From Magnetovibrio sp. (GTDB lineage: Bacteria > Pseudomonadota > Alphaproteobacteria > Rhodospirillales > Magnetovibrionaceae): a DNA stretch of 64,000 nucleotides. The stretch is from the NCBI RefSeq assembly GCF_036568125.1, contig NZ_DATCTF010000015.1:62001-126000 (forward strand). Direction: 5' to 3'. Below the pieces are notes generated by a model, which saw only the letters and a list, made by a program, of their open reading frames with translations, had not been told where the DNA came from and did not search any database. This document shows positions 5,789-46,514 of this stretch, piece by piece (position 1 is the first letter of the stretch; every line of letters begins with the position of its first letter). The position numbers were made by a program, and so were the translations under genes.

Positions 5789-6016
5789 ATGGACTTCACC
5801 CACGACCTCGATGCACGCGGCCTCAATTGCCCGCTGCCGATCTTGAAAATTCGCAAGGTCCTGAACCAAGCCGAAAGTGGCGAGGTGGTGCGTATGATCA
5901 GCACCGACCAGGGTTCGCTGAAAGACATCGAATCGTTTTGCAAGCAGACCGGCAACACCTTGCTTTCGACCACCAGTGCCGATCGCGAACACACCTTCTT
6001 CGTGCGCAAGGATTGA
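5789..6016 (+). CDS. tusA: TusA-family sulfurtransferase
   Basis: 75-residue TusA/SirA-type sulfur carrier. The signature LDARGLNCPLPILKIRK contains the active cysteine (residue 15) that carries the persulfide, followed by a two-layer alpha/beta fold. A GGAGG ribosome site precedes the ATG. With the adjacent DsrE2 protein it probably forms a relay passing sulfane sulfur to acceptors. TusA can supply tRNA thiolation, Moco or sulfur oxidation; nothing here decides which. Confidence 0.92.
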   Translation: MDFTHDLDARGLNCPLPILKIRKVLNQAESGEVVRMISTDQGSLKDIESFCKQTGNTLLSTTSADREHTFFVRKD

Positions 6017-6021
6017 ACCCC

Positions 6022-7050: not shown

Positions 7051-7134
7051 TACATGAATATGCATTTATGTCTGGAAACCTAAGCTCCGGCGCGTAAGAT
7101 GGGGACATCATCGCGCATTCAAGCTGGAGCCGTC

Positions 7135-7704: not shown

Positions 7705-7758
7705 TCACCGCCATGGCGGTGATATGCTGAGGCGACATCACCACCGTTGAGGTATCTC

Positions 7759-33945: not shown

Positions 33946-34209
33946 TAAGACTTTCTCCCTTTCGAGTGCATCTTTCGTCATCGTCCCATCGCCTGTTTCA
34001 GACGTTTTCGGGCTATAGCGACGGTGAATTTCCCCATGTGGTCCCCACCACAGGCGCTTATTAAGCCCACAATCGCATGTCCCCGCAAGTCCCGCTCCGC
34101 GTCAAAGCGCACATTAGAGATAGCTGTTTTCTACATTGGACAAATGGGCTACCTTCCAAGCATCCAAAAACCTCTGATTCTCCACAGATTCGGCAAAGAA
34201 GCAGCATCT

Positions 34210-35217: not shown

Positions 35218-35254
35218 ATTCGCAACGCGAACGGAACGGATATGAGGGCGATGC

Positions 35255-36436: not shown

Positions 36437-36461
36437 TCACAATCTCCCAACTGCGGCGTCT
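36437..36461 (+). promoter_or_regulatory. Reb-locus bipartite promoter element (plus-strand unit)
   Basis: TCACAA at 36437-36442, 15 bases, then GTCT at 36458-36461, 100 bp before the first gene of the three-gene unit. It matches the element found upstream of the reb genes with one change in the last base. Confidence 0.55.
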
Positions 36462-36560
36462 TCCTCTCAGGAATGAAAGGCTGAAACAGGCTTGGCGTCG
36501 TGCCTCGTCGGTGTGCCTTTGTGTCTCATCATGAGGTTATGAAACAGGGGAGATACGGAT

Positions 36561-36923
36561 ATGAGCGATGAAACCAATGACGGTCTCGTCACGTCGTTGC
36601 AATCGAACGAGGTGAGCCAAGAGGCGCTTGAAGTCTCCACCGTCGAGTCCGCCAGCGAAGTCAACGAAGCCACATGCATCGAAGCCTTGAGCCGGTCTTT
36701 TGAAGATTACGTCCGCAATTATCAAGATACCTGGCAGCAAGCGTGGCAGGAGTCCATCGCCATATACGAACAAGACGTCGCAAACTGGCAGAAAATCATT
36801 TCCGACTTTCAAAACGCAGGCCCGCAGCCAAGCGGGAACGTCCCACCCGCGCCCACATCGGTAAAGCCGTCTACCCCAGCCGCGCCTACGGCTAAACCCA
36901 AGCCGCAAAAATCCGGGAATTGA
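36561..36923 (+). CDS. Hypothetical protein, first gene of reb-linked unit
   Basis: 120-residue protein not recognised. It is acidic at the N-terminus. A central helical stretch (about residues 45-85) is rich in aromatic residues and Gln (SFEDYVRNYQDTWQQAW, YEQDVANWQKIISDF). The C-terminal tail is Pro/Ala/Lys-rich and disordered. It has no signal or membrane segment. GGGGAG precedes the ATG, and the next gene starts 3 bp after the stop. Position and the shared promoter element suggest a role in the R-body system, possibly as an assembly or regulatory factor; this is inference. Confidence 0.65.
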   Translation: MSDETNDGLVTSLQSNEVSQEALEVSTVESASEVNEATCIEALSRSFEDYVRNYQDTWQQAWQESIAIYEQDVANWQKIISDFQNAGPQPSGNVPPAPTSVKPSTPAAPTAKPKPQKSGN

Positions 36924-36926
36924 TCG

Positions 36927-37208
36927 ATGGACGACAGTTCAGCAAAAGCCGGATTGGATGAATTGGTCAATTCTGTCGTCGACTCGATCAAGATGACGAG
37001 TGCCGTCGAAGACGCGGTGGGGAAGCTTCAGGTCAGCACCCTGGATACGGCCAGCACGGTCACGGACGAGCTGATCAAAAACAACGTCAGCAGTCCCGAG
37101 CTCGCGCAAGAAAACCTCAAACTCCAAAAAGCGATCATCGAAAAAACCATCGCCGCAATCCATGCTCTGGGTCCGAAGGATGACTCCTCCTCGGATTCCG
37201 GCTCATAA
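36927..37208 (+). CDS. Hypothetical protein, second gene of reb-linked unit
   Basis: 93-residue acidic, helical protein, Ser/Thr-rich, with the pattern SAVEDAVGKLQVSTLDTAST and ENLKLQKAIIEKTIAAIHALG. It has no cysteine, signal or membrane segment, and ends in a run of Ser/Asp. The alternation of small residues and Val/Ile recalls the Reb proteins, but the QITDAVTQ core is absent, so I do not call it Reb. It is 3 bp after the upstream gene and 19 bp before the third gene. Confidence 0.65.
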   Translation: MDDSSAKAGLDELVNSVVDSIKMTSAVEDAVGKLQVSTLDTASTVTDELIKNNVSSPELAQENLKLQKAIIEKTIAAIHALGPKDDSSSDSGS

Positions 37209-37227
37209 TTGTTCGGAGAGTCGAACC

Positions 37228-37992
37228 ATGACCACGCAACAACCAACCCCCTTACCCCCGGTTCAAAGCGGCCCGCACACGACGATACCGCATACCGACA
37301 TTCCGCACATGGGCACGTCCCAAGCCAACATTCCCAATCCCTCCATCCCGCAAGCGGAACACGCCTCTCAACCACCGCAACCGCCGCAAACGGTGCGCGT
37401 CGAAATGCCGCCGCTGCCCCCCGGCATCACCCAAGAAGCCATCAACACGGCCATTGCCCAAGTCGAGCAAACCGGCACCACGGAGGGCATCTCGCCGGAG
37501 GTTCTGGGCGCGGCTTGCGCCCAGCTTGAAGCCCAGGCAAAAGCCCAAGGCGTCGATTTGACACAAACTCAGGCGTCACAAGATGCGCAGCCCGCGGCAC
37601 CGGCCGGGCCAAGCAACTACGTAGAAGCCGCCGTGTTCGACAAAAAAAAGGTTATGGACGGCTTCAGCGATCAGCGAGAAAAGCTCAAGACCGCCGTCAG
37701 CGATCAACGCGACGCCATGCAACAACCCTATAAGGATGCCCTGAACAAAGCAGGCATCGGCGGTGGTGGGGCAAGCACGATGACGCCCGAAACCATGGCC
37801 GAACTGGCCTCCGCCATTCAGGATCTCGACCCCGGCACCGTCGCCCTGATCAACGCCATCGGCGCCATGAACGCAAATCCGTCGATCTTGAACAGCGTGG
37901 TGTGGATTGAAATCATCCGCTCAGTCCGCGCCATGATCGCCGCCGAGGCCAAAAAACAACTCGAAGTCCTGATGCGCGCCTCCACGAATTAA
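37228..37992 (+). CDS. Hypothetical proline-rich protein, third gene of reb-linked unit
   Basis: 254-residue protein. The first 75 residues are Pro/His/Thr-rich with short repeats around IPHTDIPHMG and IPNPSIPQ. A middle region contains GITQEAINTAIAQVEQTG and ends in a duplicated motif, GFSDQREKLKTAVSDQRDAM. The C-terminal 80 residues are helical and hydrophobic (GTVALINAIGAMNANPSILN, EIIRSVRAMIAAEAKKQL). GGAG precedes the ATG at 37228. A terminator follows, closing a three-gene operon. No family recognised. Confidence 0.68.
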   Translation: MTTQQPTPLPPVQSGPHTTIPHTDIPHMGTSQANIPNPSIPQAEHASQPPQPPQTVRVEMPPLPPGITQEAINTAIAQVEQTGTTEGISPEVLGAACAQLEAQAKAQGVDLTQTQASQDAQPAAPAGPSNYVEAAVFDKKKVMDGFSDQREKLKTAVSDQRDAMQQPYKDALNKAGIGGGGASTMTPETMAELASAIQDLDPGTVALINAIGAMNANPSILNSVVWIEIIRSVRAMIAAEAKKQLEVLMRASTN

Positions 37993-38032
37993 CCGACAGC
38001 CGCACCAATCACGCCCCGTGACCGGATTGCCC

Positions 38033-38057
38033 AAGCCCCGGTTTTCGGGGCTTTTTT
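38033..38057 (+). terminator. Terminator of the 36561-37992 operon
   Basis: Perfect 8-bp stem AAGCCCCG / CGGGGCTT (38033-38040, 38046-38053) with loop GTTTT and a T-run to 38057, 41 bp after the last stop. Confidence 0.92.
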
Positions 38058-38416
38058 ATTAAATTCCGATCCGCAGCACCCCAAACACTCGTTATTAGTG
38101 TATTTTATTTCATAGTCATGAAACGAAAATAACCCAAGATACAATCTTGATTTGCATTCAGAACTTGGGCCATGCAACTTAACGTGTATATATAAATTGC
38201 TGCTTTCCGCGTTTTTTTTAATCACAATGTGCTGTGTTTATACGTCATTAGCATGCAAGGGCGCAAAGATGGCCTCGGCACGAAATGCGACAAAATTACT
38301 ATCTATGGTGCATCAAAAAGGGAGGTTCGCGCAGCCAAGACAGCAACCTGTGTTTGTATGTTGCATTATAGTTTTCGCATGCACCTTTAAACACATGGTC
38401 CACAGGACCTGCCTAA
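38058..38416. other. AT-rich intergenic region upstream of the sigma gene
   Basis: About 360 bp, clearly richer in A+T than the surroundings. It contains the candidate promoter at 38222-38247 and then roughly 170 bp of probable untranslated leader. Short frames here (for example ATG at 38251, 45 codons) have no ribosome site or recognisable product. Confidence 0.6.
38222..38247 (+). promoter_or_regulatory. Reb-locus bipartite promoter element upstream of sigma gene
   Basis: TCACAA at 38222-38227 and GTCA at 38244-38247, separated by 16 rather than 15 bases. It lies about 170 bp before the sigma-factor start and would allow autoregulation. Confidence 0.45.
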
Positions 38417-39343
38417 GTGCTGGCGCGTAATGAGACTATGGGAGTTTTTAAATTCTCCGGACATCCGGGTTTTCGCGCCACCCGGCCGTACACAGGCGAC
38501 GGCCACAGCACAAATCCAGACTCTTTAAACGACGCCATTACCGAGGTTCCGGGGCCAGGGACCACGCGCAAGTCCCGCAGTAGGAAACGCCTCTCCCCGG
38601 CGGCGGTGATTGCAAGGTCCCTGGCGCCGGACGCCCAAAACCTATCGCCGGCGGAAATCATCGCGCGATCGTTGGAAAGTGCATTCGGCGCTCCTGCCCC
38701 CCATCCCCAAAAGCTGCGCCCCTCGGCGCCACCGCCACCGGCGGCCCCGCATCCTTTTCCCCTGCCACGTCAAACTCCGCCGCCGCAAGGCCCACGCACC
38801 GGCAGGGGGCAAAACGTCGGCCTGGGGCCGTTTGAGGACTTCTGGGACGTGTGGATGGAACATCACGACTATCTGTTCAAGCAGAGCCTGCGATTCATGG
38901 CCGGCAACATGGCCGACGCCGAAGACGCGCTCAGCCAAGCAATGCTCAAAGGCTCGCAGCACTTCGATGGCGAAGCCATTCGTAACGAACGCGCCTGGTT
39001 GACGCGCCTTGTACACAATGCCTGCATGGACCAGCACCGATCGCGCAAGCGCCAAGCGCGTCTGAGCGACGAGATCGACGGCGACGACCCTGATCAAGCC
39101 CCCAACGTCACCCCCCGACCCGTGCGCACACCGGACGAGGCCCTGCACATGCAGCAGACCTTCGATCATCTTGAGCGCCAATTGATGGATCTACCCGTGA
39201 CGTTGCTGGAGCCGCTGCTGCTGCGCGTGATCGAGGAAAAATCCTACGATGAGATCGCCGGACGCATGGGACTGTCGAACTGTGCCGTGCGCAAGCGCAT
39301 CCAGCTGGCGCGCGACCGCCTACGTGAAGCGAAGTTCGTCTAA
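38417..39343 (+). CDS. ECF-like RNA polymerase sigma factor with N-terminal extension
   Basis: 308-residue sigma-70-family protein. The C-terminal 170 residues have region 2 (YLFKQSLRFMAGNMADAEDAL, then ERAWLTRLVHNACMDQHRSR) and region 4 (LMDLPVTLLEPLLLRVIEEK, SYDEIAGRMGLSNCAVRKRI), as in ECF factors. The first 140 residues are unusual: Pro-rich, basic, and containing two copies of LSPA-[AE]-[VI]-IARSL. No anti-sigma gene is adjacent. An in-frame stop directly precedes the GTG at 38417; ATG at 38438 is an alternative start. It probably activates the reb genes. Confidence 0.85.
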   Translation: MLARNETMGVFKFSGHPGFRATRPYTGDGHSTNPDSLNDAITEVPGPGTTRKSRSRKRLSPAAVIARSLAPDAQNLSPAEIIARSLESAFGAPAPHPQKLRPSAPPPPAAPHPFPLPRQTPPPQGPRTGRGQNVGLGPFEDFWDVWMEHHDYLFKQSLRFMAGNMADAEDALSQAMLKGSQHFDGEAIRNERAWLTRLVHNACMDQHRSRKRQARLSDEIDGDDPDQAPNVTPRPVRTPDEALHMQQTFDHLERQLMDLPVTLLEPLLLRVIEEKSYDEIAGRMGLSNCAVRKRIQLARDRLREAKFV

Positions 39344-39517
39344 GCCCCCTGAAACCACCACCTCGATCCACATTGCAGGCGGTCCCAACCATACCGGATC
39401 CGCCTCTTTCATGTGCGTCCTAAAGGGGCCCACGCTCCCCTGGACACAGCCTTTTTGACCTCCCCCCCTCATTTCAACGAAGAAGCCGTACACTGTTCCG
39501 TCTGGGAGGTGGCGAAC

Positions 39518-39541
39518 AAAAAAAGACCGCCGAGGTGGCGG
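39518..39541 (-). terminator. Terminator after the 39574 reb-like gene
   Basis: 5-bp stem CCGCC / GGCGG (39527-39531, 39537-39541) with loop GAGGT. On the minus strand it is followed by TCTTTTTTT. Confidence 0.7.
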
Positions 39542-39573
39542 CCTGAAGTTGAAGGCGCTTTTGAAAGGGGTGT

Positions 39574-40020
39574 TTAGGTTTTGGTCGCCGGAAATTCGGT
39601 CGCGATCGTGGTCGCCGTCGCACCGACCGTGGCCAGGTTGGTGCTTGCCGCAATGACCATTTCCTGCAGGGTAGCCAGCACCGGAGTGTAGATCGGAATA
39701 TTGGCTTCATTCTCAAGCATTTTGGTCACGATGACACCTTGAGCGGTCATTGCGATATTTTCGATATTACGTGAATAATCCGTAGCGTCCTGCACCGAAA
39801 AAGCCGCAGCCTGGGCCACCTTCTGATATGCGGTTGCCGCGCCTTGATTGGCGGCGTTGCTCATCACGGCCGCGTTGGTCTGATTGACCGCATCGATGAT
39901 CTGCGCATTGACGCCGCCGCTCGTCGCAGTCAGCGCGGTGCTGCTGGTCGGCGTGGCGGCGTCTTGCGTGGGCTCGTCGGCATCCGATGTGTTTTCGGTA
40001 TTTTCAGTGCTATCGGTCAT
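39574..40020 (-). CDS. Divergent RebB-family protein with acidic N-terminus
   Basis: 148-residue protein. Residues 1-35 are acidic and Thr/Ser-rich. The Reb core then appears in altered form: VNAQIIDAVNQTNAAVM in place of VNGQITDAVTQANVKVL, then ANQGAATAYQKVAQAAAF. The C-terminal part (TPVLATLQEMVIAASTNL) is unlike the other copies. GGAGG precedes the start. It may be a capping or modifying subunit of the R-body. No clear copy of the bipartite promoter was found; it is 160 bp from the next gene upstream. Confidence 0.7.
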   Translation of the reverse strand: MTDSTENTENTSDADEPTQDAATPTSSTALTATSGGVNAQIIDAVNQTNAAVMSNAANQGAATAYQKVAQAAAFSVQDATDYSRNIENIAMTAQGVIVTKMLENEANIPIYTPVLATLQEMVIAASTNLATVGATATTIATEFPATKT

Positions 40021-40133
40021 CTCTTCACCTCCGGACCTGACTTGGCCCTCTCTCCCCTAAGAAAGTCAATTTACGGTTTCGTGTTGCGCCTGGGATGCGA
40101 AGCGCGTTTGCCCCGTTTACACAATCTTGCAGC

Positions 40134-40162
40134 TCATCGACCAAGGGGCGATAGGTCGATGA
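40134..40162. other. Intergenic hairpin between reb genes
   Basis: Perfect 9-bp inverted repeat TCATCGACC / GGTCGATGA with an 11-base loop, just after the stop of the 40181 gene. There is no T tract, so it is a processing or attenuation hairpin rather than a canonical terminator. Confidence 0.45.
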
Positions 40163-40180
40163 CGACGGCGGCATGGACTG

Positions 40181-40423
40181 TTACTTGTTACCGCCACCGT
40201 TTGCGGCATCGAAGATCATCCGCACGCCGCTGGACGTTACGGCGTTGCCGATCTGTTGCAACCCACCCTGGGCTTGCATGGCGTTTTCCATCGCCAAGGA
40301 AATCGAGTGCGCCATGGTCTGGTAGACCATGGCCATACTCTGGGCAGGGGCTTCGGCGACCACCTTAACGTTCGTCTGCGTGACGGCGTCAGTAATTTGT
40401 GAATTGACACTGGTATCAGACAT
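40181..40423 (-). CDS. RebB-family R-body protein
   Basis: 80-residue small Reb protein. The core VNSQITDAVTQTNVKVVAEAPAQ is followed by MAMVYQTMAHSISLAMENAM, as in RebB proteins, which polymerise into the coiled ribbon called the R-body. It resembles the 40931 gene product (both have GG-[LM]-QQIGN). It is shorter than the array copies. It lies 71 bp after the 40495 gene and is probably co-transcribed with it. Confidence 0.85.
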   Translation of the reverse strand: MSDTSVNSQITDAVTQTNVKVVAEAPAQSMAMVYQTMAHSISLAMENAMQAQGGLQQIGNAVTSSGVRMIFDAANGGGNK

Positions 40424-40494
40424 ATCTGGAACCTATAAACTGTGCGTTCATACATCAGTGATCGAGTTTCTTCCGACCACCCCTAACTCCCCGA

Positions 40495-40818
40495 TTACTT
40501 TTTACTCGCCGCCAGGGCGATCAGCAGCGCCATCATAAAATCCGGTGTGTCGCTGCTGGCAACCTTGGCCGTGGCGGTGGCTCCGGCCATCGTGGCCGAT
40601 CCGTACAAATGCATCACACCCATGTTGGTTGCCGCTTGAGCGGCGATCTGGCCGTGCTGCTGCATCTGGGTGTTGTTTTCGAACATGATGCTCAGCGAAT
40701 GCGCTGCGGTCTGATAGACACTGGCCATAGCCTGGGCCGGTGCGACGCCGAGCACGGCAACATTACTTTGCGTAACCGCGTCGGTAATCATCCCATTCAC
40801 TGGTGTTGGCATCGCCAT
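40495..40818 (-). CDS. RebB-family R-body protein
   Basis: 107-residue Reb protein, diverged from the array copies: NGMITDAVTQSNVAVLGVAP, then SVYQTAAHSLSIMFENNTQM and GVMHLYGSATMAGATATAK. The 40-residue C-terminal half aligns with the IQIYSVDTMAGAVATSKI segment of the array proteins. GGAAGGAAG precedes the ATG. An exact bipartite element lies 65 bp upstream. Confidence 0.88.
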   Translation of the reverse strand: MAMPTPVNGMITDAVTQSNVAVLGVAPAQAMASVYQTAAHSLSIMFENNTQMQQHGQIAAQAATNMGVMHLYGSATMAGATATAKVASSDTPDFMMALLIALAASKK

Positions 40819-40882
40819 TTACGTACTTCCTTCCTCTCCCCACCGGGCGCATGGTCGCATCCGGGTGAACGTTCTCTATCCT

Positions 40883-40907
40883 TGACGCAAGCGGATCGAA
40901 CTTGTGA
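40883..40907 (-). promoter_or_regulatory. Reb-locus bipartite promoter (exact)
   Basis: On the minus strand, TCACAA (40907-40902), N15, GTCA (40886-40883), 65 bp before the start at 40818. The spacer sequence differs from the other copies, so identity of the two boxes is not simply due to recent duplication. Confidence 0.7.
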
Positions 40908-40930
40908 ACCGCGCGCGCATCGATTCATAT

Positions 40931-41158
40931 TTAAGACGCGCCGGCCTTGGTGATCATCGCCATTAACGCGGCGGCGGCGGAGTTTCCAATCTGTTGCATG
41001 CCACCTTGGGTCTGGGTGGCGTTTTCCATCGCCAAGCCCATGGCGTGTGACATCGCCTGCGACGACACCCCCAAGGCACCCGCCGGGCTTTCGCCCAAAA
41101 CCTTCACATTGGTCTGGGTCACGGCGTCGGTGATCTGCGAATGAACAAGTTCCGCCAT
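40931..41158 (-). CDS. RebB-family R-body protein (short)
   Basis: 75-residue protein with the Reb core HSQITDAVTQTNVKVLGESP and QAMSHAMGLAMENATQTQGG. It lacks the longer C-terminal half of the array proteins and is close to the 40181 product. It lies 43 bp after the 41202 gene with no terminator between, so it is the last gene of the 42477-to-40931 operon. Confidence 0.86.
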   Translation of the reverse strand: MAELVHSQITDAVTQTNVKVLGESPAGALGVSSQAMSHAMGLAMENATQTQGGMQQIGNSAAAALMAMITKAGAS

Positions 41159-41201
41159 GATTTAAACCTTTCTCATCAAATCGTTCTCTATGGAGTTGCC
41201 G

Positions 41202-41708
41202 TCACGTAACAGCCAGGGTTTGCTTGGAATTCTCAGTCATCTCATGAAGCAGCAACATCAATTCCGTCAGCACCTTCTCGAACGTATCGGTATTTGGACA
41301 GTTGGTCGTAGTGCTGGTGGTGTTGGTGCTGGTGTTGGTTTTGTTGAGCAAATTTTTCAACGCATCGATGCCGCCGACGGCACCGAATTCGGTGTCTCCC
41401 TCGCCGCCCGTTGTCGGGCTCGGCTGAGACGCGGGCGCGGGCGCGGGAATGTCGATCGCGACATTGCGGTTGTTGCGATGGGCATGATGACGCGCATATT
41501 CACTCGCTTCCAAAATTTGCGCCAATGCCCCCGCCAACGCCTGCATCTGGATCGGATGAGACATTTCGTGATCGCGCACCATACTTGCCGCCAGCTGGGA
41601 CTGGGTGTTGACCAAACTGAACATGGCCTCCAAGGTCGCAAGCCCGACGCCGCTTCCCAGCAGGTTCGCATTGGCGTTCATCAGCTTTCGTTCTGTCCTC
41701 ATTGCCAT
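41202..41708 (-). CDS. Reb-associated protein with Thr/Asn-rich arm
   Basis: 168-residue protein. The N-terminal half contains GSGVGLATLEAMFSLVNTQS and AASMVRDHEMSHPIQMQALAG, similar in layout to the C-terminal domain of the next gene product (GSGPAFATLGTMLANSTAQS). A Pro/Gly linker and a Thr/Asn/Ser-rich stretch follow, then a final helix, FEKVLTELMLLLHEMTENS. GGAGG six bases before the ATG at 41708 fixes the start. It does not have the QITDAVTQ core. Its role in R-body assembly is inferred from position. Confidence 0.7.
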   Translation of the reverse strand: MAMRTERKLMNANANLLGSGVGLATLEAMFSLVNTQSQLAASMVRDHEMSHPIQMQALAGALAQILEASEYARHHAHRNNRNVAIDIPAPAPASQPSPTTGGEGDTEFGAVGGIDALKNLLNKTNTSTNTTSTTTNCPNTDTFEKVLTELMLLLHEMTENSKQTLAVT

Positions 41709-41739
41709 GATCAACCTCCCCATTCGCAATCCGAATTGG

Positions 41740-42477
41740 TCAATCCGAATCTTGAGTGCCGTTGTTTAGGTTCAACAGTTGTTGCACGCAGGCGCTGGTG
41801 CAGCTCAGCCCGACGAGGTCGAGCTGGCGCTGCATCTGCGTCGCGTTCATCAACACCGAGCTTTGTGCCGTCGAATTGGCCAGCATGGTTCCCAGCGTCG
41901 CAAACGCCGGACCGGAACCCAGGACCAGGCCTACGCCCTGGCTCATCTCGTCGTATTTTTCCGCATCCCAGTCGTTGCTGCTCATATCGCCAAGTAGGCT
42001 GGACATCATGCCGAGATAACTGTCGTTGTTGCCAAACGTCGAGGGGTTGGGCGCGCGACGTCGCGGGCGGGTATTCGCACCGCTATCGGTTTGCGGATTG
42101 TTCGCCGCTTGAGCGGCTCTGCGGCGCATCGACAAAGCCGCTTGCGCCGCCATAACCGCTTCGGCGGCGGCCTCGGCCTCCTGGGCTGCATCTTCCGCAT
42201 CCTGGGCCGCAGCCTCGGCCTCCTGGGCGGCAGCTTCGGCTTTCGCCTGAAGTGCTTCCAGTTCGCTGAATTCGTCAAAATCGTCGTAATCATCGGGTTC
42301 GTCAGGAACGGTGCTGGCGGCCGTCGATGTGGGCGCCGGGCTCGACGTCTGCTTCGGGGGTGTGGCCCCGGTACGGCTTGCGGCGGGGCGTCCTGCAGTG
42401 GTCTCGGCGCCGTCTTCGATGCCGCTCCCTTTGCTGGCTCCACTGCCGGCCTTGGTGCTACTTTTTGTGTTCGCCAT
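41740..42477 (-). CDS. Reb-associated protein with Ala/Glu-rich coiled arm
   Basis: 245-residue protein. Residues 1-75 are Ser/Thr/Pro-rich and end in an Asp-rich patch (PDDYDDFDEFSELEAL). Residues about 75-115 are a repetitive Ala/Glu/Gln helix with the unit EAEAAAQ. The C-terminal 70 residues hold GVGLVLGSGPAFATL and QRQLDLVGLSCTSACVQQLL, related to the 41202 product. GGAG precedes the start at 42477. It heads the operon 42477 to 40931. It may anchor or cross-link the ribbon; no function is established. Confidence 0.7.
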   Translation of the reverse strand: MANTKSSTKAGSGASKGSGIEDGAETTAGRPAASRTGATPPKQTSSPAPTSTAASTVPDEPDDYDDFDEFSELEALQAKAEAAAQEAEAAAQDAEDAAQEAEAAAEAVMAAQAALSMRRRAAQAANNPQTDSGANTRPRRRAPNPSTFGNNDSYLGMMSSLLGDMSSNDWDAEKYDEMSQGVGLVLGSGPAFATLGTMLANSTAQSSVLMNATQMQRQLDLVGLSCTSACVQQLLNLNNGTQDSD

Positions 42478-42555
42478 CAATCGTCTCCTACCCCTTGCGA
42501 AGGTGACACTTCCATGAGATGAGCGCCGATCGCCAATCGGTCTCTTCTCCCTGCT

Positions 42556-42580
42556 AGACGTTCCCGGATCGGTTCCGTGA
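42556..42580 (-). promoter_or_regulatory. Variant Reb-locus promoter
   Basis: On the minus strand, TCACGG (42580-42575), N15, GTCT (42559-42556), 79 bp before the start at 42477. Three of ten positions differ from the consensus, but spacing and position agree. Confidence 0.4.
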
Positions 42581-42621
42581 AACACAAAACGCCTTTTTTC
42601 ATTTTTTATGCGGGACCAGGC

Positions 42622-42658
42622 CGCCGCAATCGGGAGCGATATCTCGTCGATTGCGGCG
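42622..42658 (-). terminator. Hairpin after the 42702 reb gene
   Basis: Perfect 11-bp stem CGCCGCAATCG / CGATTGCGGCG with a 15-base loop, 44 bp after the stop. The expected T tract is weak, so it is a probable rather than certain terminator. Confidence 0.55.
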
Positions 42659-42701
42659 ACCTCAGGCCCTTACAAGCCATCAAGTCCGCATAAGTCTGGT
42701 C

Positions 42702-43034
42702 TTAGCTAACGCCGGAGGTGGAGGCGCGCAGGGCGGACATCAGGGCGAGCATGTTGTCCGGAACGTCGGAGTTGCCGATCTTGGAGGTCGCCACGGCGCC
42801 GGCCATCGTATCGACGCTGTAGATCTGGATTACACCCTGGTTGGTCGCGGCCTGAGATGCGATCGCCAACTGCTGCTGCGAGCTGACCGCGTTCTCAAAC
42901 AAGATACCGGTCGAGTGGGACATGGACTGATACAGCGCGCCCATTGCCATTGCGGGCGCATCGCCCAACACTTTGACGTTGGCCTGGGTGACGGCGTCGG
43001 TAATCTGACCGTTTACGGGGGTGGGTAAAGCCAT
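42702..43034 (-). CDS. RebB-family R-body protein, array copy 1
   Basis: 110-residue Reb protein: MALPTPVNGQITDAVTQ, VLGDAPAMAMGALYQSMS, QQQLAIASQAATNQGVIQIY and a C-terminal LMSALRASTSGVS. It differs from copy 2 by about ten residues by eye. AGGAG precedes the ATG. The exact bipartite promoter lies 85 bp upstream. R-body proteins form a ribbon that uncoils on an acid trigger in Caedibacter; the role in this organism is unknown. Confidence 0.92.
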   Translation of the reverse strand: MALPTPVNGQITDAVTQANVKVLGDAPAMAMGALYQSMSHSTGILFENAVSSQQQLAIASQAATNQGVIQIYSVDTMAGAVATSKIGNSDVPDNMLALMSALRASTSGVS

Positions 43035-43118
43035 TTGAATTCTCCTGTTGTAGACCTGATAACTTGGGATGAATGCAGGGCCCGTTCGTCATGGGGTTGC
43101 ATCGTGCTTTCAGTTAAA

Positions 43119-43143
43119 TGACGGCTCGAGATGGCTTTTGTGA
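43119..43143 (-). promoter_or_regulatory. Reb-locus bipartite promoter (exact)
   Basis: On the minus strand, TCACAA (43143-43138), N15, GTCA (43122-43119), 85 bp before the copy 1 start. Confidence 0.7.
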
Positions 43144-43199
43144 CCCACACAAAGTCTTTTTTTATTATTTATTTTCAATTAGTTATATCAAGACACACC

Positions 43200-43233
43200 G
43201 AACCCGCCCGACCAAATTGGCCGAGGCGGGTTC
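43200..43233 (-). terminator. Terminator-like hairpin after reb copy 2
   Basis: 9-bp inverted repeat GAACCCGCC / GGCGGGTTC (43200-43208, 43225-43233), 24 bp after the stop of the 43257 gene. The T tract is poor. Confidence 0.55.
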
Positions 43234-43256
43234 GCTGCATGGGCGAGACTTGAGGG

Positions 43257-43589
43257 TTAGCTCACACCGCTGGTCGATGCGCGCAAAGCGCTCAGAAGCG
43301 CCAACATGTTGTTGGGCACATCGGATTGGGCGATTTTGGACGTCGCGGCGGCACCAGACATGGTGTCGACGCTGTAGATTTGGATCACACCTTGGTTGGT
43401 CGCGGCCTGAGACGCGATCGCCAGCTGCTGCTGCGAGCTGACGGCGTTCTCATAAAGAATGCCGGTCGAGTGTGAAAGCGATTGGTACATCGCACCCATC
43501 GCCATTGCAGGAGCGTCACCAAGAACCTTCACGTTGGTCTGGGTGACGGCATCCGTGATCTGGCCGTTAACCGGAGTGGGTAGAGCCAT
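43257..43589 (-). CDS. RebB-family R-body protein, array copy 2
   Basis: 110-residue Reb protein almost identical to copy 1, sharing the C-terminal ALRASTSGVS. Differences include TQTNVKV, GAMYQSLS, SGAAATSKIAQ and PNNMLALL. AAGGAG precedes the ATG. It has its own exact promoter element 82 bp upstream and a hairpin downstream, so it looks like an independent transcription unit. Confidence 0.92.
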   Translation of the reverse strand: MALPTPVNGQITDAVTQTNVKVLGDAPAMAMGAMYQSLSHSTGILYENAVSSQQQLAIASQAATNQGVIQIYSVDTMSGAAATSKIAQSDVPNNMLALLSALRASTSGVS

Positions 43590-43670
43590 GTTCGATCTCC
43601 TTCATCGTATAGGACTGCCAGGCACCACGGCCATACTGTTTGGCTTTGCGGTGCATCTCTCTCACGCTAA

Positions 43671-43695
43671 TGACGTTCGATAGGGACAGTTGTGA
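43671..43695 (-). promoter_or_regulatory. Reb-locus bipartite promoter (exact)
   Basis: On the minus strand, TCACAA (43695-43690), N15, GTCA (43674-43671), 82 bp before the copy 2 start. A purine-rich GAGAGAGATGCACC leader follows. Confidence 0.72.
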
Positions 43696-43742
43696 TTGAT
43701 CAATGTGTGTTTTTTTCAAGGTCTTTGAAAATTGCCGGAAAT

Positions 43743-43768
43743 GCCCGACCCGTCCCCGACTTCGGGCC
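43743..43768 (-). terminator. Terminator-like repeat after reb copy 3
   Basis: First of three copies of the GACCCGTCCCCGAC sequence. It can pair as GCCCGA / TCGGGC (43743-43748, 43762-43767). It lies 21 bp after the stop of the 43789 gene. Confidence 0.5.
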
Positions 43769-43788
43769 AGAAATTTCCAATGCGAGAC

Positions 43789-44112
43789 TTAGACCACGAC
43801 AGCCCGAAGCGCCGACAGCAACGCCAGCATGTTGTCCGGAACATCGGAACCGGCGATTTTCGACGTCGCCACCGCACCGGCCATGGTGTCGATGCTATAG
43901 ATTTGGATCACACCCTGGTTGGTCGCGGCCTGTGCGGCGATGCCCAACTGCTGCTGCGAGCTGACGGCGTTTTCGTACAGAATGCCGGTCGAGTGCGAAA
44001 GGGATTGGTACATTGCACCCATGGCCATCGCCGGGGCGTCACCGAGAACTTTAACATTGGCCTGGGTGACAGCATCCGTGATCTGACCGTTCATGGGAGT
44101 GGGCATAGCCAT
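43789..44112 (-). CDS. RebB-family R-body protein, array copy 3
   Basis: 107-residue Reb protein: MAMPTPMNGQITDAVTQ, VLGDAPAMAMGAMYQSLS, QQQLGIAAQAATNQGVIQIY. The C-terminus is ALRAVVV instead of ALRASTSGVS, so it is slightly shorter. GGAG precedes the ATG. An exact promoter element lies 84 bp upstream. Confidence 0.92.
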   Translation of the reverse strand: MAMPTPMNGQITDAVTQANVKVLGDAPAMAMGAMYQSLSHSTGILYENAVSSQQQLGIAAQAATNQGVIQIYSIDTMAGAVATSKIAGSDVPDNMLALLSALRAVVV

Positions 44113-44150
44113 CTTCTATCTCCTACTTTAGGTTTCACTGCTTGGCACCT

Positions 44151-44195
44151 CAGAACCTGCGGGGTCGTGCGGTGCGTTTCTCTCTCTCAGGTTCT
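44151..44195 (-). other. Leader hairpin of reb copy 3
   Basis: AGAACCTG / CAGGTTCT (44151-44158, 44188-44195), an 8-bp inverted repeat, sits between the GTCA box and the gene, in the expected 5' leader. The loop holds the purine-rich GAGAGAGAAAC segment, so the structure could affect translation or stability. Confidence 0.45.
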
Positions 44196-44220
44196 TGACG
44201 CCAATCGCTTGCGGTTGTGA
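44196..44220 (-). promoter_or_regulatory. Reb-locus bipartite promoter (exact)
   Basis: On the minus strand, TCACAA (44220-44215), N15, GTCA (44199-44196), 84 bp before the copy 3 start. Confidence 0.72.
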
Positions 44221-44261
44221 TCTGCAAAGTCAGAATTTTTAGAAGCGATCCAATGAATGCG

Positions 44262-44290
44262 AAAAACTGACCCGTCCCCGACATCGGGCC
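44262..44290 (-). terminator. Terminator after reb copy 4
   Basis: Second copy of GACCCGTCCCCGAC. Stem GGCCCG / CGGGTC (44290-44285 with 44274-44269, one G-T pair), followed on the minus strand by AGTTTTT, 20 bp after the stop of the 44310 gene. Confidence 0.72.
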
Positions 44291-44309
44291 GGTCTTTCGA
44301 AGATAGGAC

Positions 44310-44636
44310 TTAAGCCGCAGTGGATGCGCGCAACGCCGACATCAGCGACAGCATGTTGTTGGGAACATCCGAATTGGCGATCTTCGACGTTGCGGCGGCA
44401 CCGGCCATGGTGTCGACACTATAGATCTGCAGAACGCCTTGGTTGGTTGCGGCTTGAGACGCGATTGCGAGCTGCTGTTGCGAACTCACAGCGTTCTCGT
44501 ACAAAATTCCCGTCGAATGTGAGAGCGACTGAAAAATCGCCCCCATGGCCATCGCGGGCGCACTTCCCAAAACCTGGACGTTGGATTGGGTAACGGCGTC
44601 CGTAATTTGGCCGTTCATCGGAGTCGGTAATGCCAT
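44310..44636 (-). CDS. RebB-family R-body protein, array copy 4
   Basis: 108-residue Reb protein: MALPTPMNGQITDAVTQ, SNVQVLGSAPAMAMGAIFQSLS, QQQLAIASQAATNQGVLQIY, ending LMSALRASTAA. AAGGAAAA precedes the ATG. A variant promoter element lies 75 bp upstream and a terminator follows. Confidence 0.92.
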   Translation of the reverse strand: MALPTPMNGQITDAVTQSNVQVLGSAPAMAMGAIFQSLSHSTGILYENAVSSQQQLAIASQAATNQGVLQIYSVDTMAGAAATSKIANSDVPNNMLSLMSALRASTAA

Positions 44637-44710
44637 AATATTTTCCTTAATGGGGTTGGATCGCTTAACACCTCAGCCTTCGGCCTAGCGGTGCATCCCT
44701 CTCACGTTGG

Positions 44711-44735
44711 TGATGTTCGATGCCGACAAGTGCGA
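44711..44735 (-). promoter_or_regulatory. Variant Reb-locus promoter
   Basis: On the minus strand, TCGCAC (44735-44730), N15, ATCA (44714-44711), 75 bp before the copy 4 start. Three positions differ from consensus, yet the flanking leader (GTGAGAGGGATGCACC) closely matches copy 2. Confidence 0.5.
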
Positions 44736-44768
44736 TTGGGTTTGTCGTTGTGTGAGATGTGGATTGGG

Positions 44769-44807
44769 AAAAAAAGAAAACCTGACCCGTCCCCGACATC
44801 GGGTCAG
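44769..44807 (-). terminator. Terminator after reb copy 5
   Basis: Third copy of GACCCGTCCCCGAC. Perfect 8-bp stem CTGACCCG / CGGGTCAG (44782-44789, 44800-44807) with a 10-base loop. On the minus strand it is followed by GTTTTCTTTTTTT. Confidence 0.88.
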
Positions 44808-44829
44808 TGTTTTCTTATCACAAGCGGAC

Positions 44830-45156
44830 TTAAGCCGCCGTGCTCGCCCGAAGCGCCGTCAACAGCGACAGCATATTGTCCGGAACGTCGGAATTGGCGA
44901 TCTTCGAAGTCGCAACCGCAGCCGACATCGGCGGTACGGAATAGATCTGAATCACACCCTGGTTGGTGGAAGCCTGAGCGGCAATGTTCAACATTTGCTG
45001 CGAGCTAACCGCGTTTTCATACAAGATGCCCGTCGAGTGCGAGAGCGACTGGTAAATCGCACCCATTGCCATCGCGGGGGCATCGCCCAGAACTTTAACG
45101 TTTGCCTGAGTAACGGCGTCCGTGATCATTCCATTCACGGGAGTCGGCATGGCCAT
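44830..45156 (-). CDS. RebB-family R-body protein, array copy 5
   Basis: 108-residue Reb protein, first unit of the array in the direction of transcription: MAMPTPVNGMITDAVTQ, VLGDAPAMAMGAIYQSLS, QQMLNIAAQASTNQGVIQIY, then SVPPMSAAVATSKIANSD, where the PPM replaces DTM of the others. It ends ALRASTAA. TGGAG precedes the ATG, and a one-mismatch promoter element lies 52 bp upstream. Confidence 0.92.
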   Translation of the reverse strand: MAMPTPVNGMITDAVTQANVKVLGDAPAMAMGAIYQSLSHSTGILYENAVSSQQMLNIAAQASTNQGVIQIYSVPPMSAAVATSKIANSDVPDNMLSLLTALRASTAA

Positions 45157-45207
45157 AAGCTGTCTCCATTTCCTTGGTTTGAGTGGTTTCTCTCCCCTAC
45201 AGCTGTT

Positions 45208-45232
45208 TGACGCCAGGCAATCGATTATGTGA
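45208..45232 (-). promoter_or_regulatory. Reb-locus bipartite promoter (one mismatch)
   Basis: On the minus strand, TCACAT (45232-45227), N15, GTCA (45211-45208), 52 bp before the copy 5 start. Confidence 0.62.
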
Positions 45233-45261
45233 TGAAATTGTTCGCGATTTTTGATCCGGCC

Positions 45262-45288
45262 AAAAAAAGAGAGGGCCGAAGCCCTCTC
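45262..45288 (-). terminator. Terminator after the OmpA-family gene
   Basis: Perfect 8-bp stem GAGAGGGC / GCCCTCTC (45269-45276, 45281-45288) with a CGAA loop. On the minus strand seven Ts follow, 27 bp after the stop. Confidence 0.93.
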
Positions 45289-45314
45289 CTTCCTCAGTTT
45301 CTTGCCGATCGAAG

Positions 45315-46169
45315 TTAGCGCTCGAACACCACCTCAACGCGGCGGTTCATACGTTCGCGCATACCGTCTTCGGTCGCAACCTGCGGGCTGGTTTCGCCCG
45401 CGAACGAGGTCGTCATCATGGAACCCATGACACCCTCATCCATCAGCGCTTTGCTAACCGCTTCCACGCGCTTGCGAGACAGGGCTTCATTGTAGGCATT
45501 CGAGCCGGAACGGTCGGCGTGACCGATCAGCACCACACGGGCGACTTTGGCCGCTTTCGCCGCTTCGGCCGCACGCTTGATGAGATCAACGTTGGCGCTG
45601 CTCAAATCCGCGCTATCGTGGGTGAAGTAGACGATGAACGGTTCGGGTAGAGCCGCGGGCATCGCCTTGGGCATCGGTGCGGGCATCGCCATATCACCGG
45701 CGCAATCGGGAATGGCTTTCTCATAGCCCGCGCGCATCATTGCGATGTGGTCCGTCTGATGGCCTTCTTCCGCCTGTTCCATCCAATGTTCGAACCAGGT
45801 TTGCGCCAATGCACAGGCGTCCGGCGCGACTTTCGGCGCGTTGGTTTTCAACGCCGCGCTCAAAGCATTGTAGGCGCTGTTGATGGCGTCGCCATCGGCT
45901 TTAATCTTGCGATCGCTGGGCATCTGCACCGCCGGCGCATTGCCCATGGCAGCCATTTCGGCGCGGGTGTTAAAGAAGCTGACGGAACGCCAATCGCCTT
46001 CCTTGATCTCAAATTCCGCGCGTTCGATGTAGCGTTTGTGCAGCGCGCTGGCAAAAGCGTCGCCTTGATCTCCCATCGCCGAAACACCGGCGACGTCGTA
46101 GTTCGCGGCGCATGCCGACAGCATCGCCACGGCGCCGAGCATGGCGCTGGCTTTGAATATAGTTTTCAT
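45315..46169 (-). CDS. OmpA-family outer-membrane lipoprotein
   Basis: 284-residue lipoprotein: signal peptide with lipobox MLSACA (Cys about residue 20). A helical periplasmic region of about 150 residues follows, then a Met/Pro/Ala linker. The C-terminal OmpA domain has FIVYFTHDSADLSSANVDLI, VVLIGHADRSGSNAYNEALS and RMNRRVEVVF, which binds peptidoglycan. AGGAGGAGG precedes the ATG at 46169. A TCACAT-N15-GTAA element 71 bp upstream suggests it may belong to the reb regulon. It is directly upstream of the array on the same strand, with its own terminator. Confidence 0.9.
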   Translation of the reverse strand: MKTIFKASAMLGAVAMLSACAANYDVAGVSAMGDQGDAFASALHKRYIERAEFEIKEGDWRSVSFFNTRAEMAAMGNAPAVQMPSDRKIKADGDAINSAYNALSAALKTNAPKVAPDACALAQTWFEHWMEQAEEGHQTDHIAMMRAGYEKAIPDCAGDMAMPAPMPKAMPAALPEPFIVYFTHDSADLSSANVDLIKRAAEAAKAAKVARVVLIGHADRSGSNAYNEALSRKRVEAVSKALMDEGVMGSMMTTSFAGETSPQVATEDGMRERMNRRVEVVFER

Positions 46170-46514
46170 CGGGGCCTCCTCCTGAAACGACAAACACAAA
46201 GGGTCGCGACTTTTTTATTATGCCCATTTTACGATAAGTTTACGCGTCTAGGACAAACATGTGAAGGATCGCTATTGAATTCAATGACACAATTGAATTA
46301 GGAGCCTCTATTTGATGGAACATGCCTGAGCAGCACACCGTTATCTTTCCCCGTATCATTCCCCGCCCATTCCACATGTGTCACCGCGAAAATTTCAACT
46401 TGTGCCTTACGTCACAGCACAATGATCAGTAACGAGATATTCGATTAAGGCAATTGCAACATCGCACGCGCGGCATGTATGATCCTCGAAATTCAGCTGA
46501 CCCCAGAGGGCTAA
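46170..46514. other. Intergenic region between OmpA-family gene and gmhA
   Basis: 345 bp between divergent genes. It holds the weak promoter candidate at 46240-46264 for the minus-strand gene. No gene or terminator is seen in it. Confidence 0.6.
46240..46264 (-). promoter_or_regulatory. Weak Reb-locus promoter candidate
   Basis: On the minus strand, TCACAT (46264-46259), N15, GTAA (46243-46240), 71 bp before the OmpA-family start. Two of ten positions differ from consensus. Matches of this quality also occur by chance. Confidence 0.35.

What the first reader, a model, noticed from the sequence alone, without database searches (positions are those of the whole stretch)
36437..46264. R-body (Reb) locus with at least nine RebB paralogues and its own sigma factor
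Nine minus-strand genes encode short proteins with the RebB core (ITDAVTQ, NVKVLG, then YQ..SHS). RebB proteins form the R-body, an acid-triggered ribbon known as the killing trait of Caedibacter; homologues are widespread in Proteobacteria but mostly unstudied. This locus combines many paralogues, two accessory proteins, an ECF-like sigma factor, a three-gene plus-strand unit and an OmpA lipoprotein. I infer an inducible contractile or lytic device whose subunits are drawn from a gene family.
Basis: partly seen in the sequence, partly recalled or inferred. Interest (0 to 1): 0.9.

Follow-up and report, generated by a model that had tools for sequence, protein, structure and literature searches.

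The report
R-body locus with dedicated sigma regulon
A marine bacterium of the genus Magnetovibrio carries a large gene cluster for R-bodies (coiled protein ribbons known for killing protists that eat the bacteria), and its genes share one sigma-factor-like promoter that recurs in front of R-body genes in distant bacteria and points to further, unstudied partner genes.

Summary
Observation confirmed; the gene count is if anything too low. Eight minus-strand genes are strong RebB (PF11747) hits. The 281-aa ORF passes the cut-off too, and iterated profiles add the 148-aa and 175-aa proteins, so all 11 genes between 39574 and 45156 look Reb-related. The sigma factor is real. The OmpA lipoprotein is only a neighbour: it stands beside the same glycosyltransferase in a reb-less Magnetovibrio. 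R-body loci with a linked sigma factor are known (PMC3583457; P. aeruginosa fecI2, PMC8322103), so this is a large variant of a known kind.

New here: a bipartite promoter, TCACA-N15-CGT(C/T), precedes most inferred transcription units of the locus, the plus-strand three-gene unit included. It stands upstream of 181 of 477 reb genes in 70 of 85 loci from several orders; shuffles give 0.8. The sigma factor's N-terminal extension has a short SP-x-(D/E)-IIA-x-S type peptide, present in 37 of 45 closer sigma homologues and 0 of 34 distant ones. The motif also leads outside the locus to a 472-aa membrane protein, found in 4 of the 6 genomes with this locus type, each time behind the promoter, one with CGTA. 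Ribbon formation was not testable.

The parts
36437..36460 (+). sigma-type promoter site TCACAA-N14-CGTC for the plus-strand unit P1-P2-P3
   Evidence: same place in L036, L037, L038 and L042
36561..36923 (+). P1, 120 aa, fast-evolving (33-41% identity to relatives), no Pfam family
36927..37208 (+). P2, 93 aa, no Pfam family; profile finds it in 10 of 85 reb loci
37228..37992 (+). P3, 254 aa, R-body-associated family with a 48-aa core (F-x-x-QR-x-x-L-x-x-x-V-x-x-QR type) and a C-terminal helix; in 23 of 85 reb loci
38033..38053 (+). terminator-like hairpin plus T run after P3
38438..39343 (+). ECF-type sigma factor (regions 2 and 4) with about 130-aa N-terminal extension holding SPAAVIARSL and SPAEIIARSL; the listed ORF starts at 38417, alignment favours 38438
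39524..39544 (-). terminator-like hairpin plus T run after the last reb gene
39574..40020 (-). RX, 148 aa, divergent Reb-family protein with an acidic/Ser-Thr-rich N-terminus
40181..40423 (-). R1s, 80 aa, short (RebD/group-3-like in size) RebB protein
40495..40818 (-). R2, 107 aa, RebB protein of a distinct branch
40884..40907 (-). promoter site for R2 (inferred unit R2-R1s-RX)
40931..41158 (-). R3s, 75 aa, short RebB protein
41202..41708 (-). A1, about 168 aa, divergent Reb-related protein (listed ORF to 41729)
   Evidence: direct hhalign negative
41740..42477 (-). A2, about 245 aa, Pro/charged N-terminus plus Reb-like C-terminus (S4/RapA-like layout; listed ORF to 42585)
42702..43034 (-). 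R4, 110 aa, RebB
43120..43143 (-). promoter site for R4
43257..43589 (-). R5, 110 aa, RebB
43672..43695 (-). promoter site for R5
43789..44112 (-). R6, 107 aa, RebB, no clear orthologue in the genus relatives
44197..44220 (-). promoter site for R6
44310..44636 (-). R7, 108 aa, RebB, no clear orthologue in the genus relatives
44712..44735 (-). degenerate promoter site for R7 (TCGCAC-N14-CATC)
44830..45156 (-). R8, 108 aa, RebB
45209..45232 (-). promoter site for R8 (TCACAT-N14-CGTC)

Best explanation
An R-body production locus of the sigma-linked (Group 2-like) kind. The long Reb proteins R4-R8 and R2 are the likely ribbon subunits; R1s, R3s, RX, A1 and A2 are Reb-derived assembly or end-piece proteins, A2 resembling the RapA/S4 type in layout. 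The adjacent ECF-type sigma factor directs RNA polymerase to the shared promoter TCACA-N15-CGT(C/T), switching on about seven short transcription units at once: R8, R7 (weak site), R6, R5, R4-A2-A1-R3s, R2-R1s-RX, the divergent unit P1-P2-P3, and a few genes elsewhere in the chromosome. The coiled ribbon stays in the cytoplasm and extends when a grazing protist ingests the cell, bursting it and harming the grazer. Shown here: family membership, purifying selection, conserved synteny, shared promoter and its spread. Supported by published work elsewhere: dependence of rebP1 expression on a linked sigma factor in P. aeruginosa. Inferred: the extent of the transcription units, which subunit does what, that this sigma reads this promoter, ribbon formation, trigger and target.
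For: PF11747 hits and Reb signatures in the alignment (QITD, KxxxD/E, QQQ; exceptions in the membership table). dN/dS about 0.02-0.10 in the pairs of long paralogues and orthologues where dS is finite. Locus in four of five other genomes of the genus and, at the same glycosyltransferase, in another genus. Promoter: six exact sites in the 10-kb locus of seven in the 64 kb, 0.62 expected; own genome 15 matches of TCACAA-N14-CGTC, 5 in the locus, 1 for the backwards control; 181 of 477 reb genes in 70 of 85 loci with spacer 15, 17 genes with spacer 16, 2 with the seven other spacers 11-14 and 17-19 together, shuffles 0.8 in sum; 274 sites in 1.557 Mb, of which 182 upstream of Reb-family and 43 upstream of sigma genes, 9 for the backwards control. 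Sigma homologue (E up to 1e-3) in 79 of 85 loci. PA14: deleting fecI2 abrogates PrebP1 activity (PMC8322103, passages). R. centenum: reb operon RC1_1993-1999 rises up to 50-fold in cyst development (PMC4340629, passage) and sigma RC1_2001 rises in cyst formation and falls in germination (PMC7117780, passage).
Against: I found no report of ribbons in Magnetovibrio (one paper holds both words, seen as a listing, on another subject). The sigma gene of the window has no exact site upstream, so it is not autoregulated by this motif here, unlike in Thalassospira. R7's site is degenerate. With one mismatch allowed the window shows no excess of sites (11 against 10.0 expected). 15 of 85 loci lack a spacer-15 site on any reb gene, including all five cyanobacterial loci, four of which have the spacer-16 form. 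In the class survey the P3 core was found in 2 of 15 reb-positive genomes and in 1 genome with no reb match, so P3 is not a general component. The sigma-promoter link rests on co-occurrence only. The 85 loci were chosen by similarity to R1s (80 of them the best of 506 from a capped list) and are not independent.
Confidence: 0.82

Rival explanations
1. The TCACA-N15-CGTY element is a binding site for a Crp/Fnr-type activator (RcgA/RebR/HP2.4 family) rather than a sigma promoter.
For: Crp/Fnr-type regulators are frequent at Group 2 reb loci (PMC3583457; Ruegeria plasmid) and RcgA is needed for PrebP1 (PMC8322103).
Against: The element is not palindromic; the RebR consensus is a GTRMC-N4-GKYAC palindrome (PMC5527310, passages); no Crp/Fnr domain was found among the proteins of the window's locus; -10 CGTC and the spacer resemble known ECF promoters such as ECF41 TGTCACA-n16-CGTC (PMC3426412, passages).
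Confidence: 0.12
2. The reb genes of this genus are decaying or co-opted: the proteins form inclusions for storage or envelope scaffolding and no extendable ribbon, the extra paralogues being neutral.
For: No ribbon report found for the genus; R7 promoter degenerate and R7 lacks the KxxxD pair; clean absence in one Magnetovibrio, G002.
Against: dN/dS about 0.02-0.10 where dS is finite, no stop codons inside the nine matches, promoters of P1, R2, R4, R5 and R8 kept at orthologous places in five genomes each, window included.
Confidence: 0.1
3. The locus is a phage-derived or contractile injection device.
For: R4 matches an unnamed PHROG, phrog_32040, at 1.3e-20.
Against: No match of R4 in 50,697 phage records at E 1e-5; no sheath, tube or baseplate match among the locus proteins (one weak tail-fibre match of A2's low-complexity part, E 0.0012); fixed chromosomal place beside glycosyltransferase genes in several genomes.
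Confidence: 0.03

Closest known systems
Group 2 reb loci (Raymann et al. 2013, PMC3583457)
   Same: Reb genes with a linked RNA polymerase sigma factor (HP2.3) and hypothetical proteins of about 200 aa
   Different: No Crp/Fnr regulator (HP2.4) in the block; 11 Reb-related genes against 1-9 Reb homologues per genome in that survey (their count is of Reb homologues, of which this window has 8-9); extra P1-P2-P3 unit under the same promoter. Whether P3 is their HP2.2 could not be tested (accessions are in a figure).
P. aeruginosa PA14 reb cluster: rebP1, rebP2, rebD, rapA, fecI2, rcgA (PMC8322103)
   Same: Reb subunits, a short RebD, RapA, and a sigma factor shown to be needed for rebP1 transcription
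   Different: PA14 has three reb genes and a transcription factor rcgA; the window has more subunits, an N-terminally extended sigma and P1-P3. The PA14 FecI2 motif was published as a logo (PMC4362757, Fig. 2) that I could not see. PA14 itself was not examined; P. protegens, P. chlororaphis and other Pseudomonas loci were.
Caedibacter taeniospiralis R-body genes rebA-rebD
   Same: RebB family structural proteins (window R4 matches its plasmid at 39% identity)
   Different: rebC was found only in Caedibacter (PMC3583457); I did not examine its promoters or look for a sigma factor there
ECF41 sigma factors (PMC3426412, passages)
   Same: Bipartite promoter TGTCACA-n16-CGTC; the sigma carries an extra domain that regulates its activity; neighbouring genes are the only detected targets
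   Different: ECF41 has a C-terminal extension and COE target genes; the reb sigma has an N-terminal extension and ends with region 4; TG before TCACA is not conserved and the spacer is one base shorter

Membership tests
R-body / Reb family locus | RebB (PF11747) domain proteins | tested here: met
   8 strong hits plus A2 above the cut-off, RX below it
R-body / Reb family locus | three or more reb genes clustered | tested here: met
   all between 39574 and 45156, none found elsewhere in the genome
R-body / Reb family locus | Reb signatures QITD, KxxxD/E, QQQ (as listed in PMC13430693) | tested here: met
   alignment A3: R4, R5 and R6 have all three. Exceptions: R2 and R8 read MITD; R2 lacks the lysine and QQQ; R7 reads QVLGS for KVLGD; R8 reads QQM; the short R1s and R3s have QITD and KxxxE but no QQQ
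R-body / Reb family locus | SDS-insoluble coiled ribbons that extend | not testable with these tools
   needs microscopy
R-body / Reb family locus | toxicity to a eukaryote after ingestion | not testable with these tools
   needs grazing assays
Group 2 reb synteny (PMC3583457) | linked sigma factor HP2.3 | tested here: met
Group 2 reb synteny (PMC3583457) | HP2.1 and HP2.2, about 205-220 aa | tested here: inconclusive
   A2 (about 245 aa, Reb-like C-terminus) and P3 (254 aa) are candidates; accessions not available as text
Group 2 reb synteny (PMC3583457) | linked Crp/Fnr-type regulator HP2.4 (frequent association) | tested here: not met
   no such domain among the 18 proteins of the locus and its edges that were scanned
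ECF sigma factors | only sigma regions 2 and 4 | tested here: met
   TIGR02937 57 bits, cut-off 42.9
ECF41 | C-terminal extension and COE neighbour genes | tested here: not met
   region 4 ends at residues 302-305 of 308; neighbours are reb genes
Contractile injection system / tailocin | sheath, tube and baseplate genes | tested here: not met
   no such match for the locus proteins in Pfam or, for the seven window proteins scanned, in PHROGs (one weak tail-fibre match of A2, E 0.0012)

The most novel reading that the evidence does not exclude
R-body formation across distant bacteria is governed by one dedicated sigma-factor lineage with a near-universal promoter. In the forms with an N-terminal extension, the SP-x-(D/E)-IIA-x-S peptides are a docking site by which a co-regulated partner (P3 is the first candidate, since a P3-sigma module recurs even where it lies on another contig than the reb genes) holds or releases the sigma, so that ribbon assembly and transcription are coupled as in an assembly checkpoint. 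The extra-locus regulon, such as the 472-aa membrane protein, then contains the missing partners that make an extended ribbon harmful.
Probability: 0.15. Interest if true: 0.78.

Novelty: new variant of a known kind. Interest (0 to 1): 0.56.

Why it matters
Reb genes are recognised in hundreds of taxa (671 in PMC13430693), yet partners, inducers and toxins are known in only a few. A promoter signature that marks reb units from Alpha- to Gammaproteobacteria (and, one base longer, in cyanobacteria) gives a direct way to look for co-regulated genes genome by genome, and already points to two non-neighbouring genes in Magnetovibrio. It also turns 'is the linked sigma factor the switch?' into a simple reporter test. 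The genus includes M. blakemorei strain MV-1, recalled as a cultured magnetotactic bacterium, for which I found no R-body report.

Tried and rejected
OmpA lipoprotein as part of the system: rejected. In reb-less G002 the tblastn matches of OmpA and of the same glycosyltransferase lie 75 bp apart; its upstream element TTCACAT is kept there without the CGT half, and a sigma-70-like TTCACA-N17-TAAACT fits it in the window. In G005 no OmpA match was seen in the 1.9 kb held beyond R8.

P1, P2 and P3 as Reb relatives: not supported; P3 by hhalign, all three by iterated HMM with no overlap with Reb hits. A1 against Reb by hhalign was negative; the iterated HMM joined it, with some risk of profile drift.

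P3 structure: AlphaFold model poor (mean pLDDT 55.7, pTM 0.25, helices only), so no fold search was made. Thalassospira P3-like protein: same place and layout, but the profile link is weak (hhalign E 0.0014, one helix; the Thalassospira-seeded profile shares only L063 and L086 with the other set), so it is not counted in the 23 of 85 except L063.

Further regulon members: of 10 own-genome sites outside the locus (one of them in the window at 7197) only two had an ORF start within 300 bp downstream on the same strand; six of the other eight lie inside the largest ORF at that place (seven of the ten in all). The small Ig-like protein keeps the site in 3 of the 6 genomes with this locus type. Relatives hold more sites than the backwards control outside their loci; most of these were not examined. 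Phage origin: no record matched. Rfam: nothing in the locus. PDB: no relative of the Reb profile; the 472-aa protein has only two weak, partial matches (E 0.006-0.009), to SDR-family oxidoreductase chains.

Dropped before counts: L036, L037, L039 and L042 were left out of the 85-locus counts because L055, L054, L066 and L056 are the same contigs. L105 and L106 come from one MAG and were both kept.


Full report
What is there. The window is part of contig C15 of a 3.39-Mb genome. A relative in the same genus, G004, has a contig of the same length and the same reb place as NZ_MCGG01000055.1 of Magnetovibrio blakemorei MV-1, so I take the genus to be Magnetovibrio. Between an epimerase and a glycosyltransferase (34024-36418) and an OmpA lipoprotein (start codon probably 46169) lies a block of a plus-strand unit P1-P2-P3, a plus-strand sigma factor, and 11 minus-strand genes.

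The Reb proteins. Eight genes are strong PF11747 hits (65.5-102.9 bits, cut-off 24); RX scores 18.9; A2 scores 24.7 for its C-terminus and 28.4 in the genome search. RX aligns with the Reb profile (hhalign E 1.4e-8). Iterated HMM searches over the ORFs of 85 reb loci started from A1, A2 or RX all converge on the Reb family and list 10 or 11 members in the window; the direct hhalign for A1 was negative. The block 39574-45156 thus seems to hold Reb-family genes only, in three shapes: long (R2, R4-R8; 107-110 aa), short (R1s, R3s; 75-80 aa) and extended (RX, A1, A2). The 2026 survey describes a secondary group S4, which includes RapA, with an extended, Pro- and charge-rich N-terminus; A2 has that layout (PMC13430693, Results read).

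Paralogue number. Relatives in the genus have R4, R5 and R8; R6 and R7 are seen only in the window. The protein tree does not resolve them. Synonymous distances between the window's paralogues run from about 0.8 to saturated, while dN is 0.06-0.15, so the copies look old and under strong constraint. The number is high but not a record. With PF11747, 15 of 385 genomes of the class have matches, 1 to 11 per genome, the window's genome having 9. With my own HMM, 85 loci hold 1 to 14 each, the window 10; the 14 are in Methylobacter tundripaludum.

Neighbourhood. The order glycosyltransferase, P1, P2, P3, sigma, Reb block is kept in G003, G004 and G005; the contigs of G001 and G008 (another genus) cover parts of it in the same order. 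In G002, a complete Magnetovibrio without reb matches, the glycosyltransferase and the OmpA gene are neighbours, 75 bp between the tblastn matches: an empty site. The OmpA gene's upstream element TTCACAT is kept in G002, without CGT, and in G005 no OmpA match lies in the 1.9 kb held beyond R8. OmpA is therefore a neighbour. P3 matches in 5 of 19 relatives searched, which are the five with this locus type; three other reb-positive genomes (G014, G045, G052) had no match at that threshold. The strong sigma matches (E below 1e-40) are in those five plus G045 and G052.

The promoter. Reading the upstream regions showed TCACA(A/T)-N14-CGTC before R2, R4, R5, R6, R8 and, on the other strand, P1. In the 64 kb this pattern has 7 matches, 6 of them in the locus; 100 shuffles gave a mean of 0.62 and a maximum of 3. 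With one mismatch allowed there is no excess over chance (11 against 10.0), so the signal lies in exact sites. In the genome, TCACAA-N14-CGTC has 15 matches, 5 in the locus, against 1 for the backwards control. In four relatives it has 5 (G002, no reb; control 2), 17 (G003, 5 in the locus; control 3), 12 (G004, 5; control 0) and 17 (G005, 6; control 2); the excess outside the loci is unexplained. At orthologous places the site precedes P1 in L036, L037, L038 and L042, and R2, R4, R5 and R8 in L035-L038; in L038 it also precedes A2. In Thalassospira it precedes the sigma gene too.

Spread. I took the 80 best named loci (of 506 tblastn-confirmed matches, themselves from a capped list) that encode a relative of R1s, left out duplicates among my earlier loci, and added the window and four unnamed loci: 85 loci, 477 reb genes. 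TCACA-N15-CGT(C/T) stands within 200 bp upstream of 181 genes in 70 loci: Magnetovibrio and family 22 of 41 genes, Thalassospira type 77 of 132, other Alphaproteobacteria 21 of 99, Caulobacterales 4 of 44, Methylobacter 4 of 14, Pseudomonas 16 of 24, Xanthomonadales 21 of 34, Neisseriales with Paraburkholderia 14 of 40, Cyanobacteria 0 of 43, others 2 of 6. Spacer 16 adds 17 genes (13 in other Alphaproteobacteria, 4 in Cyanobacteria). Spacers 11-14 and 17-19 give 2 in all; dinucleotide shuffles average 0.8 in sum over the groups. Counting dyads without a preset pattern puts TCACA, TTCAC or GTCAC with (G)CGT at the top, often tied with unrelated dyads, for Xanthomonadales, Chromobacterium and kin, Caulobacterales, Thalassospira and mixed Alphaproteobacteria; in Cyanobacteria a TCACA-N16-CGTT dyad is among those tied at 4 of 5 loci; in Pseudomonas, whose loci are close kin, and in a small Rhodobacter-type group other dyads came first. 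Over all 1.557 Mb there are 274 sites: 182 upstream of Reb-family genes, 43 upstream of sigma genes, 17 elsewhere in the clusters and 32 outside; the backwards pattern has 9. These loci are related, so counts are not independent trials; the spread over orders is the stronger argument.

The sigma factor. It has sigma regions 2 and 4 only. A homologue (E up to 1e-3) is found in 79 of 85 loci; apart from Methylobacter (167 bits) the Gamma- and Betaproteobacterial ones are weak, about 20-80 bits. An alignment of 21 representatives shows RKR or RKH in the presumed recognition helix, with one RKK. In the window, most Alphaproteobacteria and Methylobacter an N-terminal extension carries one to three copies of a short peptide such as SPAEIIARSL or SPVEVIARSV. 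By one regular expression it is present in 37 of 45 sigma proteins that score over 90 bits and in 0 of 34 that score less, with 48 hits in sigma ORFs (27,624 residues) and 1 in all other ORFs of the 85 loci (about 2.1 million residues). The expression was written after seeing some of these sequences. Four cyanobacterial sigma proteins have hardly any extension (27-31 residues).

A module of P3 and sigma. In G052 the reb matches are on contig C7, while contig C51 (L138) has site (spacer 16), a 171-aa Ala/Glu-rich protein, a 165-aa protein, site (spacer 16), sigma. The 165-aa protein matches the P3 core profile, built without it, at 24.6 bits. This repeats the order of the window although it is on another contig than the reb genes. 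The Magnetovibrio-seeded P3 profile finds members in 23 of 85 loci, among them Methylobacter, Brevundimonas, Kordiimonas and Nisaea, with a gap-free 48-aa core in 16 aligned rows. Against a general role: the core was found in only 3 of 385 genomes of the class, namely this one, G398 inside its reb region, and G137, which has no reb match.

Regulon outside the locus. Of 10 own-genome sites outside the locus, two stand just before an ORF. One is a 472-aa protein with Pro-rich ends, no Pfam or NCBIfam family and three hydrophobic stretches long enough to span a membrane. Thirteen relatives were searched: it occurs in G001, G003 and G005 besides G000, all with this locus type, and in each the promoter stands before it (G001 with CGTA). 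It was not found in reb-less G002, in G004 and G008, which have the locus, in G014, G045 and G052, which have other reb loci, or in the other four. The other is a 93-aa Ig-like protein that has the site in G000, G001 and G005, but not in G003, G004 or G008, nor in reb-less G010 and G012.

How it most likely works. The sigma factor, itself under an unknown signal, opens the whole set at once; Reb subunits assemble into a coil; extension in a grazer bursts the cell. Linked expression of sigma and reb genes is reported for PA14 (passages of PMC8322103) and is consistent with R. centenum, where the reb operon RC1_1993-1999 is induced up to 50-fold in encystment and sigma RC1_2001 changes in the same sense (passages of PMC4340629 and PMC7117780); that RC1_2001 is the linked sigma is my inference from the locus numbers. 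Extension at low pH and killing are known for Caedibacter (passage in PMC8322103). All of that is inference for this organism.

What is known and what is not. Linked sigma factors were described by Raymann et al. (PMC3583457, Results parts 1 and 2 of 3 read), and the 2026 survey notes them but set them aside (PMC13430693, Results and the first part of the Discussion read). A FecI2 motif for PA14 was derived by Schulz et al. (PMC4362757, passages), but its letters are in a figure I could not see, so the PA14 form may already be in print. I found no paper that gives a shared reb promoter across species, in searches of an open-access library, of which I opened only the papers named here; subscription papers are not covered. 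The shape resembles the ECF41 promoter TGTCACA-n16-CGTC (PMC3426412, passages).

Verdict. A genuine, large R-body locus with its own sigma factor; a variant of a known kind. The promoter signature, the sigma peptide and the extra-locus gene are the parts that a specialist could use at once.

Noticed in passing
L144 58-1524 (G000:C10, site at 745,579-745,602): 472-aa protein with Pro-rich ends and three hydrophobic stretches behind the reb-type promoter; homologues with the site in G001 (CGTA), G003 and G005, none found in reb-less G002.
   Followed up: partly
L147 1170-1524 (G000:C13): 93-aa Ig-like (Big_6, below cut-off) protein behind the same site; the site is kept in 3 of the 6 genomes with this locus type.
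   Followed up: partly
L138 (G052:C51) 5988-8171: Sigma, P3-like and Ala/Glu-rich genes with spacer-16 sites on a contig other than that of the reb genes.
   Followed up: partly
L076: Methylobacter tundripaludum locus with 14 Reb-family genes by my HMM, with P3 and a sigma whose N-terminus has peptides of the SPAQVIAQSI type.
   Followed up: no
L061-L077, e.g. L066 2985-4694: In 13 Thalassospira-type loci the same promoter precedes a 510-640-aa protein; the two copies scanned have no Pfam family; in the three loci read it stands upstream of a P3-like gene and the sigma.
   Followed up: partly
window 43739-43775, 44261-44297, 44776-44812: Repeated hairpin-like intergenic element downstream of R6, R7 and R8 (73% and 89% identity to the middle copy), perhaps terminators duplicated with the genes.
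   Followed up: no
L134 13425-15469: Empty site in reb-less Magnetovibrio G002; its glycosyltransferase match holds one in-frame TAG. Not examined.
   Followed up: no
window 42702-43034: R4 matches phrog_32040 (unknown function) at 1.3e-20, although no phage record matched at 1e-5.
   Followed up: no
window 7197-7220: The only exact promoter-pattern match in the window outside the locus; it lies inside a 201-aa ORF whose start looks TetR-like to me and is probably chance.
   Followed up: partly
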